DNA of 64,000 bases from Pseudofrankia saprophytica (GTDB lineage Bacteria; Actinomycetota; Actinomycetes; Frankiales; Frankiaceae), in contig NZ_KI912266.1 of NCBI RefSeq assembly GCF_000235425.2, positions 5,143,217 to 5,207,216 on the forward strand, in the 5' to 3' direction. Of the stretch, positions 9,001 through 12,000 are shown piece after piece. The number at the start of each line of letters is the position of its first letter. Position 1 is the stretch's first letter. A program made the position numbers and the translations under genes. The notes beneath the pieces were generated by a model. The model worked only from the letters and a program-made list of their open reading frames with translations, was not told the origin of the DNA and did not search any database.

Positions 9001-12000
9001 CGGGCCGGCGCGACCGGCCGCAGGCCCCGCGCCGCCGGCACCACCAGCGTCGGGCCCTCCAGGTCGGCCAGCGCCGAGCGCCAGGCCTTCTCGGACGCGG
9101 CGGTGTCCCGCTGGCGCAGCCACACCAGGTAGTCCCGGAACGAGCCGCGCGACGCGGGCGGGGACGCCGGGTCCGGCGCGCTAGCGCCAGCCGTGCCGGT
9201 GTTGGTGTCGGTGTCGGAGGCCTCGGCGGGGTCGGCGGCGTAGAGGTCCAACAGCCCCTCGACGAACAGGGCGCCCGACCAGCCGTCCCACAGCAGCACC
9301 TGGCGGTTGACGACCAGCCGGTCGCGCCCCTCGGCCAGGTGGATCAGGATCAGGCGGAACAGCGGTGGCCGGGCGACGTCGAACGGGCGGGCGCGGTCGG
9401 CGGCGGCGATCCGCTCGGCCTCGGCCGACCGGTCGGGCTCGGCCAGGCCGGACAGGTCGATCTCGTCGACCGGCGCGGGCAGCTCGCTGGCGATGACCTG
9501 CACCGGGCGGGGAAGGCCGTCGGACAGGAAGCCGGCGCGCAGCGTCGGGGTGCGGGCCATCAGCGTCCGACAGGCGCGGCGCAGCCGCTTGGCGTCGAGC
9601 CGGTGGTCGAAGTCGAAGGTGAACTGGGCGGTGTAGGCGTCGCTGGTCTGGTCGAGGGCCGAGTGGAAGTACAGGCCCTCCTGCAGCGGCGAGAGCGGCC
9701 AGACGTCCTCGACCGGGGCAGGGAACGCGCCGGCGATCCGGGCTGACTCCTGCACGGAGAGTGTGAGCAGCTCGACCGGCGGCTGGGCCGTCGCCGGCCC
9801 GACGGCCGTGGTCGCCGTGGCCGGCGCGAGCGTGGCGGTGGCCGGCGCGAGCGCGGCCAGCTCGCCCAGGGCGGCGAGGAAGCCGTCGGCGATGCGCGCC
9901 GTGTCGCCCGCCGCGAGCACCGTCGTCAGGTAAGTGAACGTCGCGCGCAGCGCCGGCCCGTCGGCGGTCTCGACGCAGACCGCGTCGACGGTCAGCGGGT
10001 AGCCGACGCCCAGGCCGGGGTCGGGCCTGGCGGCGAGCGCGTCGAACTCCTCGGCCGGTCCCCAGTCGGCCCGGCGGTCGGCGCCGAACCGGCCCAGGTA
10101 GTTGAACAGCACCTGGGCCCGCCCGGCGCGGGCGAGCGCCGGGCCGGCGAGCGGGTTGGCGTAGCGCAGCATGCCGAAGCCGAGGCCGCCGTCGGGCGTG
10201 GCCCGCAGCCGGGCCGTCACGTCGGCGAGCGTCGCGCGCACCTGCGGCCGGGCCGCCGGGAGCCTGACCGGCGCGATGCTGGTGAACCAGCCGACGGTCC
10301 GGGAGAGGTCGACCCCGGGGACGACCTCCTCGCGGCCGTGGCGTTCGAGGTCGACGAGCAGGTCGCCGTCGCCGGCTCCCACCGGCTCGCCGCCGGGCTG
10401 ACCGCCCGCCGGCCCTGCCGGGAGCGCGAGACGCAGGCCGGCCAGCAGCACGTCGGTGACCTCGGCACCGGTCGCCACGGGGACGCCGGTGAGCAGCGCG
10501 GCCGTGACCGCCGACGGCAGCTCGACGACCAGGCTCGCGGTCTCGGCCACCGTGCCGACAGCCGCCGGGCCCGGCTGGGGCTCGGTCGGGCCGCCGGCGG
10601 CGGCGGTGACCGGCCCGATCGGCTCGGCGAACGGCCGCCCGCCCGGCGCGAGCGTGTCCAGCCAGTGGGTCAGTTCGCCGAGCCGGGCCGGGGCGGCCGC
10701 CTGCTCACCGAGGACCTGACTGAAGCCGCGCAGCGACGTGCCCACCGGGTCGAGCGCGGGCCGCCCGCCGGACCCGGCCGCGAGGTACCCGGCCTCCAGG
10801 TCGGCCAGCAGGATCCGCCACGACACCCCGTCGACGACGAGGTGATGGGCGACGAGCACCAGCCGGCCCGGCTCGGCGGGGCCCGCGTCGAGCCAGACCG
10901 CGCGCAGCATCACCCCCGCGTCCGGGTCGAGACGGCCGGCGGCCGAGCCGGAGGCGGCGGCGATGACCGCGCGCAGCGCAGTCGGGTCGAGCCCGGCGAC
11001 GTCGATCCGGGTCAGCAGGTCGGCGCCCGTCGGCCCGCCCGCCGCCGTCGCGTCCCGCGTCGCCTTGCCTGCCGCCGTCGTGCCCTCCGCTGCCCCGTCA
11101 CCAGTCGTGGACGCCGCCGGGTCGATCTGGAGCAGCCAGACACCGGGCGCGGGCCGCAGCAGCCGGGAACGCAAGCCGTCGTGGTGCGCGACCAGGGCCG
11201 CGAGCGCGGCTCGCAGCGCGGCCTCGTCGGCACCGGGCGGAGTCCGGACCAGGAACGCCTGGTTGAACCGCCGGATCTCGCCGCCCCACTCGGCCAGCCG
11301 GGCCACGATCGGCAGCGGGGTGAAGATCCCGGTCGCCGTCGCGTCGAAGGCCGGGAGCATGACCGCGGCCGGATCGGCGGACGCGGTGGCCGGATCGGCG
11401 GACGCGGTGAGCCGCGGCGGCCGCCCGGACGGGGCGGATTGACCCCGCGGAATCAGCTCGCCCTCGGGGACAGGTCCGCCCTCGGGGACAGGCGCAGGCT
11501 CCACCGCTGCGGCGCGGCCGGCGACGAGTGCCGCGAGCGCGGCCGGCGTCCGCTGGACGAAGACCTCGCGCGGGGTGAGCCTGATGCCCTCGCGGCGGGC
11601 CCTGGTGACCAGCTGGATCGCGAGGATGCTGTCGCCGCCGAGCGCGAGGAAGTCGTCGTCGGCGCCGACCCGGTCGAGGCCGAGCACGGCGGCGAACACC
11701 GCGCACAGCGCGCGCTCCAGCTCGGTGCCACCGGGCCGGGACGAGGTGGCCGCGGACAGGTCGGGGGCCGGCAGCGCGGCCCGGTCGAGCTTCCCGTTGC
11801 CGGTGAGCGGCAGCGCGTCCAGGGCGACGACCGCCGCCGGGACCATGAAGTCCGGCAGCGCCGCCGCGGCCCTCGCCCGCAGCGCCGCGCCGTCGACCCG
11901 CTGGTCCGCGCGGGGGACGACGTACGCGACGAGCCGGTGCCGGTCGGCGCCGTCCTCCCGGGCGAGGACGACGACCCGTTCGACCGCCGGGTCGGCGGCG

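What the first reader, a model, noticed from the sequence alone, without database searches (positions are those of the whole stretch)
9200..9400. Third condensation domain lacks the HHxxxDG histidines
The C domain after the epimerisation domain reads [14 protein letters not shown] where LxxxHHxxxDGWS is expected. The DGWS part is intact but both His are replaced (Gln-Val, or Arg-Gln if one residue is inserted), while the other four C domains and the E domain of this protein keep theirs. It must condense D-Thr with the next residue, so either chemistry without the catalytic His, an unrecognised subclass, or a bypassed step is implied.
Basis: seen in the sequence. Interest (0 to 1): 0.6.

Follow-up and report, generated by a model that had tools for sequence, protein, structure and literature searches.

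The report
Condensation domain without catalytic histidine
An iron-scavenger assembly enzyme carries a bond-forming domain that has lost its supposedly catalytic histidine; related domains across actinobacteria share the loss and, wherever the next module could be read, stand before one for N5-hydroxyornithine, which suggests a special domain type that makes hydroxamate bonds without that histidine.

Summary
On the minus strand at 9317-9276 the third C domain of a siderophore NRPS reads [14 protein letters not shown]. Aligned without gaps to HHxxxDG, the first His is Gln and the second, catalytic, His is Val. It is no sequencing error: 7 of 9 close genus loci (own included) share it, dN/dS is about 0.25, and a model (pLDDT 91) has the normal C fold. 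It belongs to a clade ('Cw', x[H/Q/R][L/F/V/M]xxWDGWS) in many actinobacterial genera; all 53 deduplicated members have a hydrophobic residue for the second His. In a sample gathered through the following A domain, 32 of 36 readable C domains before the code DMEN.GLIN (N5-hydroxyornithine) lack that His. A second clade (HH to EL) appears to have lost it independently (AU p 0.015), again before that code. Cw sits at the hydroxyornithine module of coelichelin- and scabichelin-type assembly lines. In those products, as I recall, this residue is acylated on its side-chain N-OH. Best explanation: a hydroxamate-forming C subclass whose hydroxylamine nucleophile needs no histidine base. The bond's position is inferred, not shown. 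I saw no description of such a subclass in the papers searched.

The parts
9276..9317 (-). C3 active-site motif [14 protein letters not shown] (H1 to Q, H2 to V, Trp before DG)
8349..9752 (-). third condensation domain (Cw type), P0001 aa 2884-3351
3..18401 (-). NRPS open frame C1-A1-T-C2-A2-T-E-C3(Cw)-A3-MT-T-C4-A4-T-C5-T; the three orthologs read end in an E domain
9912..11279 (-). epimerisation domain of module 2 (approximate limits), HHLVVDGVS intact
12189..13301 (-). A2 domain, Thr-type code DFWNIGMVH (read by eye)
6819..8297 (-). A3 domain, code DMENMGLIN (N5-hydroxyornithine type), immediately after the Cw domain
6042..6764 (-). N-methyltransferase insert of module 3 (approximate), LEIGVGTG motif
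3603..4946 (-). C4, HHIATDEWS (His intact), approximate limits
372..1709 (-). C5, HHIAADEGS (His intact), approximate limits; followed by T and, in three orthologs, E without an A domain
20113..25422 (-). salicylate-synthase-like chorismate-binding region, two carrier domains, C/Cy and A domain in one frame (siderophore starter, inferred)
41106..42311 (+). FecCD iron-siderophore permease; a second one in frame 30318-32030 (-); binding protein 40098-41102 (+)

Best explanation
C3 is an active condensation domain of a subclass (called Cw here) that joins the upstream peptide, ending in D-Thr, to the side-chain hydroxylamine (N5-OH) of PCP-bound, probably alpha-N-methylated N5-hydroxyornithine, and so makes an iron-binding hydroxamate in the backbone instead of an alpha-peptide bond. 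A hydroxylamine is neutral at cell pH and a strong nucleophile, and its proton is lost easily after attack, so the second His of HHxxxDG, which takes that proton in ordinary C domains, is dispensable. A hydrophobic residue there (Val here; Leu, Phe or Met elsewhere), a Trp before DG and other changed pocket residues would position the long side chain instead of the alpha-amine. Shown: the motif, its conservation, the tie to the hydroxyornithine-type A code, and two clades with the loss. Inferred: the N5 bond in this protein, and the chemical reason.
For: (1) 64 of 66 readable C domains before DMSWEE A domains in the C-first set and 32 of 36 in the A-first set lack H2 (the sets share some species). 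After 80% redundancy removal of the pooled sets, 51 of 54 before the hydroxyornithine code against 1 of 139 before other readable codes (one misparsed code, L023, was assigned by rule, confirmed). (2) Two clades lost H2, both before this code: Cw core (98*) and lin2 with HH to EL (99*), motif masked; a single clade for both is rejected, AU p = 0.0148, though the grouping was chosen after a first tree. (3) Cw sits at the hydroxyornithine module of five coelichelin-type lines (L127-L131) and twice in L161, each time before such a module; PMC9854754 gives CchH as fhOrn, Thr, hOrn. (4) Same-residue control: in the scabichelin-type line G080 module 3 has Cw, while terminal module 5, code DAQEGGLVD, has HHIAGDEWS; PMC7692728 assigns the near-identical DAWEGGLVDK to hydroxyornithine. 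(5) All 53 rows picked by WDGWS have L, F, V or M at H2, and Glu becomes Gln/Arg at the column I align by hand to acceptor-pocket residue Q2921 of FscG. (6) In FscG, H2697Q keeps about 1% activity with an alpha-amine acceptor (PMC8097023). (7) Intact fold, pLDDT 91.
Against: No experiment or structure shows the N5 bond for this product. That coelichelin, erythrochelin, exochelin MS and scabichelin carry the middle hydroxyornithine acylated on N5 is recalled, not read here; PMC9854754 describes the coelichelin tetrapeptide with two Thr, which conflicts with my recollection of two fhOrn. A-code assignments rest on recall and on remarks in two papers. Four fuscachelin-type C domains keep HH before the same code (L132, L133, L135, L136; T. 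fusca identified by 100% identity to PDB 7KVW), and so do the terminal modules of L110 and L111, so the code does not force the loss. The tie rests on only two inferred origins, and one AU test whose groups were not fixed beforehand. Trp before DG in 53 of 53 is by selection of rows. 38 of 53 Cw rows keep a His at H1, so a motif without any His is seen only in the NRQ/NRR and EL groups.
Confidence: 0.72

Rival explanations
1. Cw makes an ordinary alpha-peptide bond to hydroxyornithine; loss of the second His is tolerated drift or an adaptation to recognise the side chain, and the hydroxamate, if any, arises later.
For: The second His is not essential in every C domain (PMC11546977, passages). 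DFT in PMC8097023 allows water as the base. Four fuscachelin-type and two terminal C domains before the same code keep HH.
Against: The loss is fixed across many genera and appears to have happened twice, both times before this code. A terminal hydroxyornithine-type module keeps HH in the same scabichelin-type line; that its residue is alpha-linked is recalled.
Confidence: 0.17
2. C3 is a dead domain and the step is bypassed or done in trans.
For: Both His are gone in this protein; His-less C-like domains such as X and interface domains are known to be non-condensing (recalled).
Against: No other C domain lies between modules 2 and 3. dN/dS is 0.23-0.28, in the range of the other C domains. 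The same type is the only C domain at that place in coelichelin- and scabichelin-type lines.
Confidence: 0.05
3. The variant adapts the domain to an N-methylated acceptor (MT in module 3) or to a D-configured donor (E domain before it).
For: The window protein has both an E domain before and an MT after; the lin2 representative L165 also has an MT motif.
Against: Rhodococcus, coelichelin-type and Mycolicibacterium lines have Cw without an MT motif, and many Streptomyces lines have Cw with no E motif just before it. HH C domains follow E domains in several lines, e.g. L041 and L060.
Confidence: 0.03
4. Sequencing or assembly error.
For: None found.
Against: The same letters in 7 of 9 genus loci and in Frankia, Pseudonocardia and Nocardioides records, with NRQF in Rhodococcus.
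Confidence: 0.01

Closest known systems
DCL condensation domains (e.g. PvdL C3, SrfA-C; PF00668)
   Same: Same fold, C domain after E, DGWS intact, best PDB sequence and structure matches.
   Different: Second His replaced by a hydrophobic residue; Trp before DG; Glu to Gln/Arg in the acceptor pocket; the next A domain, where read, is of the hydroxyornithine type.
Fuscachelin-type C domain before hydroxyornithine (T. fusca cluster, L133)
   Same: Near relative of Cw (one 99* group with it), same A code.
   Different: Keeps HHIVMDGWS; fuscachelin's hydroxyornithine is, as I recall, alpha-linked to Ser.
Streptothricin ORF18 (HQxxxDM)
   Same: C-family enzyme with the second His replaced, yet active (PMC11546977, passages).
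   Different: Adds beta-lysine to an aminoglycoside; not linked to hydroxyornithine.
X domains (HRxxxDD) and interface domains (recalled)
   Same: C-fold domains that lost the catalytic motif.
   Different: Extra, non-condensing recruitment domains; C3 is the only C domain at a working elongation step.
Cyclization (Cy) domains
   Same: Condense although they lack HHxxxDG.
   Different: Carry DxxxxD; C3 does not.

Membership tests
Canonical DCL condensation domain | Full PF00668 domain and C-domain fold | tested here: met
   246 bits; pLDDT 91 model, Foldseek E 1.9e-39 to a SrfA-C C domain
Canonical DCL condensation domain | HHxxxDG with the second His | tested here: not met
   QVLLWDG
Canonical DCL condensation domain | Lies between E and A | tested here: met
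Cyclization (Cy) domain | DxxxxD motif | tested here: not met
   NRQVLLWD has no first Asp at that spacing
X domain | HRxxxDD motif, placed before a terminal TE | tested here: not met
   motif and position differ
Interface domain | Extra C-like domain beside a working C domain | tested here: not met
   only one C domain between modules 2 and 3
Dual E/C domain | Extended N-terminal HH motif (recalled) | not tested
   a separate E domain is present
Proposed Cw hydroxamate-forming subclass | H2 not His, with Trp before DG | tested here: met
   window [10 protein letters not shown]; of 53 deduplicated rows picked by WDGWS, 53 have L/F/V/M at H2
Proposed Cw hydroxamate-forming subclass | Followed by a DMEN.GLIN A domain | tested here: met
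   window code DMENMGLIN; 64 of 64 Cw with a read A domain in the C-first set, window included
Proposed Cw hydroxamate-forming subclass | Clade holding the window domain | tested here: met
   25 of 26 Cw rows in one 98* group with motif masked; L111 open
Proposed Cw hydroxamate-forming subclass | Acylates N5-OH of hydroxyornithine | not testable with these tools
   needs enzyme assay or product structure

The most novel reading that the evidence does not exclude
Actinobacteria have at least twice evolved a distinct NRPS condensation domain that builds hydroxamates by N5-acylation of hydroxyornithine without any catalytic base side chain in the HHxxxDG position (QV, RF, EL forms). The H2 residue would then be a sequence marker that predicts alpha- versus N5-linkage of hydroxyornithine in orphan siderophores.
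Probability: 0.6. Interest if true: 0.8.

Novelty: new variant of a known kind. Interest (0 to 1): 0.68.

Why it matters
Whether the second His of HHxxxDG is a base, a positioning residue or neither is an open argument (PMC8097023, PMC11546977). A large natural family that appears to work without it, on a chemically different nucleophile, makes the question directly testable. It would also give genome miners a simple rule for where the chain runs through the hydroxamate nitrogen; the antiSMASH and NaPDoS C-subtype lists quoted in PMC10212144 (passages) name no such type.

Tried and rejected
A rescue His elsewhere: position 367 of the domain (RHG before the latch strand) is His in 36 of 53 Cw rows, but is absent from the lin2 sequence printed, so it is only a candidate. 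Automatic A-code reading failed for several domains (printed with ?), and three H2-less cases were misparsed (L023, L048, L078); one search shows FDMSWEE in all three, with a broken frame after it in L078. The script stopped at ortholog G002, so dN/dS is given for two orthologs only. Literature searches for a hydroxamate-forming C domain gave no title, abstract start or passage that I saw describing one, but lists were capped (30 of 77, 30 of 1,317) and PMC12971057 was seen only in a listing. Papers were seen as passages only, except PMC8097023 sections 8 and 9 and PMC9854754 section 20. On checking, two statements were mended without a change of odds: Trp before DG in 53 of 53 is by selection of rows, and the AU test's group was named after a first tree.

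Full report
WHAT IS THERE. The window lies in a Frankia-like actinobacterial genome (nearest named match Pseudofrankia sp. BMG5.36, 88% identity over C3). A giant NRPS frame runs on the minus strand from 18401 beyond base 1. Its third C domain (9752-8349) reads [14 protein letters not shown] at 9317-9276. The profile of the domain aligns to PvdL without a gap here, so H1 is Gln and H2, the catalytic His, is Val. The other C domains and the E domain in the window keep HH. Nearby are a chorismate-binding (salicylate synthase-like) region fused to carrier, C/Cy and A domains, FecCD permeases, a periplasmic binding protein and ABC transporters; I infer a salicylate plus hydroxamate siderophore. 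An ornithine N5-monooxygenase candidate (PF13434, E 1.1e-110; the seven other hits have E-values of 2.9e-9 or weaker) is elsewhere in the genome.

IT IS CONSERVED. Among 9 genus loci over 49% identical (own included), 7 read [11 protein letters not shown] and 2 read SHHFLLWDGWS, where in the same register H2 is Phe. The domain's dN/dS against orthologs G001 and G005 is 0.275 and 0.225; its four sister C domains give 0.23-0.32. The predicted structure (pLDDT 91, pTM 0.87) has the C-domain fold, with a strand ending at Gln151 and a helix starting after the Asp, and matches solved C domains best.

IT IS A CLADE. A scan of GTDB contigs kept the best 80 of 578 confirmed matches (one of its two patterns was [QH][VF]LLWDGW, so this set is biased). 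Many share Trp before DG and a hydrophobic residue at H2. Of 245 deduplicated domains, 53 were picked by WDGWS; all 53 have L, F, V or M at H2, and H1 is His in 38, Gln in 13 and Arg in 2. No other row of that set has Trp before DG by the name pattern used. With the motif masked, 25 of the 26 Cw rows used form a 98* group; L111 and the HH-bearing fuscachelin-type rows join it at 99*, in open order. In the larger FastTree, motif included, the core has support 1.00 and, with L111, 0.78.

THE TIE TO HYDROXYORNITHINE. In the biased set, 64 of 64 Cw whose next A domain was read (window included) are followed by DMEN[L/M]GLIN (the window's code printed there as DMENDGLIN is a parsing slip, DMENMGLIN). 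To lessen the bias I searched 393 genomes of the class with a DMENLGLIN A domain instead (four candidates scored per genome). I fetched 40 loci covering 41 of the 45 best of 83 listed matches; the four left out are in genomes of the window's genus whose C domains were already seen and lack H2. The 40 loci hold 37 A domains with this code in 36 loci; 36 have a readable C domain, and 32 of these lack His at H2. The other 4 all read FHHIVMDGWS. The C-first set gives 64 of 66 by the same script; its two HH cases are the last modules of L110 and L111. The two sets share some species. Over all 386 C-superfamily domains extracted, H2 was missing before this code in 102 and HH was present in 5; before other readable codes HH was present in 202. 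Other missing H2: six HY C domains, one HR X-type, one Cy-like (DA), four Cw with no A domain in the stretch, and three Cw with misparsed codes that one search shows to be FDMSWEE. After 80% redundancy removal: 51 of 54 against 1 of 139, Fisher p about 1e-41; this p ignores shared ancestry and the biased sampling.

A SECOND ORIGIN. One A-first locus, L165, reads TSELILLDGWS: HH to EL, with Leu, not Trp, before DG. A search of its family (297 genomes) gave 25 loci at 74% identity or more (L179-L203, one of them L165's own). The motif is readable in 24 (L196 is cut) and is SELILLDGWS in all 24; the A domain is readable in 24 (L202 is cut), with FDMSWEE and [11 protein letters not shown] in all 24. 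In the masked tree eight lin2 rows (99*) group with L204 (100*), which keeps H2 (QHILMDGWS) and has a different A code. Holding Cw and lin2 together costs 62.9 log units, AU p = 0.0148, on a quick tree and with the group named after the first tree. The simplest reading is two losses of H2, each before a hydroxyornithine-type module.

KNOWN ASSEMBLY LINES. Five NRPS frames of 3,648-3,698 aa in one unnamed genus (g24, probably Streptomyces) have A(fhOrn-type)-T-C-A(Thr-type)-Cw-A(DMENLGLIN)-T. An E motif lies after module 1 in the two examined (L127, L131); the E of module 2 was not detected, though the spacing leaves room. This fits the CchH layout given in PMC9854754 (fhOrn, Thr, hOrn; D, D, L). 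L161 has a beta-Ala-type module, Cw-hOrn-E, Thr-E, Cw-hOrn, as I recall the exochelin MS order, but with one more C-A-T after it. Mycolicibacterium loci such as L060 show the first Cw of that order; their stretches end before a second. G080 has the scabichelin-type order: Cw at module 3 (DMENLGLIN) but HHIAGDEWS at module 5, code DAQEGGLVD. PMC7692728 assigns hydroxyornithine to the scabichelin module-5 code DAWEGGLVDK; I take the two as the same but for one aligned position. PMC7601586 reports a 100% scabichelin-like cluster in S. jeojiense NRRL B-24555; that strain's locus L048 has Cw. PMC4786211 notes that Glu239 marks oxidised ornithine, as in A1 of FxbC. That the middle hydroxyornithine of these siderophores is acylated on N5 is recalled, not read; 'tris-hydroxamate' for scabichelin (passages) would fit it.

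HOW IT LIKELY WORKS. In the FscG C domain the second His lies 3.6 A from the acceptor amine, H2697Q leaves about 1% activity, and calculations put proton transfer to His after C-N bond formation (PMC8097023, sections 8 and 9). A hydroxylamine should need little help with either step: its conjugate acid has a pKa near 6 (general chemistry, recalled). Cw differs from canonical rows not only at H2 but also at other columns: Q/R for E at the column that I align by hand to FscG Q2921, N/T/S at 255, and R at 321. I therefore propose that Cw positions the side-chain N-OH of PCP-bound hydroxyornithine at the thioester and forms a hydroxamate, leaving the alpha-amine free (here methylated by the MT domain).

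LIMITS. The N5 bond is not shown for this protein. The fuscachelin-type HH domains before the same code (T. fusca identified by 100% identity of a neighbouring sequence to PDB 7KVW) fit only if their Ser-hydroxyornithine bond is alpha, which I recall but did not read. PMC9854754 gives coelichelin two Thr, against my recollection. Two origins are few.

VERDICT. It is a new variant of a known kind with a clear, testable mechanism.

Noticed in passing
window 1-1709 (-) and orthologs L173-L178: The last module is C5-T5 with no A domain; three orthologs (G001, G002, G005) read C5-T5-E5, also without A. The scabichelin-type G080 has an A domain (DAQEGGLVD) there, so it may have been lost and T5 loaded in trans, perhaps by the hydroxyornithine A3.
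   Followed up: partly
L151, L153, L154, L155, L156, L159, also L079: A late C domain of erythrochelin-like NRPSs reads HYxxxDEWS: another loss of the second His (6, L079). In five of the six the protein ends right after it (stop 307-323 aa on; L156 is cut), so it may serve release.
   Followed up: partly
window 20113-25422 (-): Chorismate-binding (salicylate synthase-like) region, two carrier domains, C/Cy and A domains lie in one open frame.
   Followed up: no
L204, L205: Relatives of lin2 with H1 lost but H2 kept (AQHILMDGWS, SEHILMDGWS) before an A domain with FDASWEQ, perhaps another ornithine-derived acceptor; only L204 was placed on the tree.
   Followed up: partly
G000 contig 1, 6124011-6125045: The only strong ornithine/lysine N-monooxygenase hit lies about 1 Mb from the NRPS, not in its cluster.
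   Followed up: no
window 17748-17774 (-): C1 of the protein has HHIAWDDAS (DD for DG), also in three orthologs.
   Followed up: no
L078: The A domain after its Cw shows a broken frame just after the TPR stretch, so this copy is either mis-assembled or decayed.
   Followed up: no
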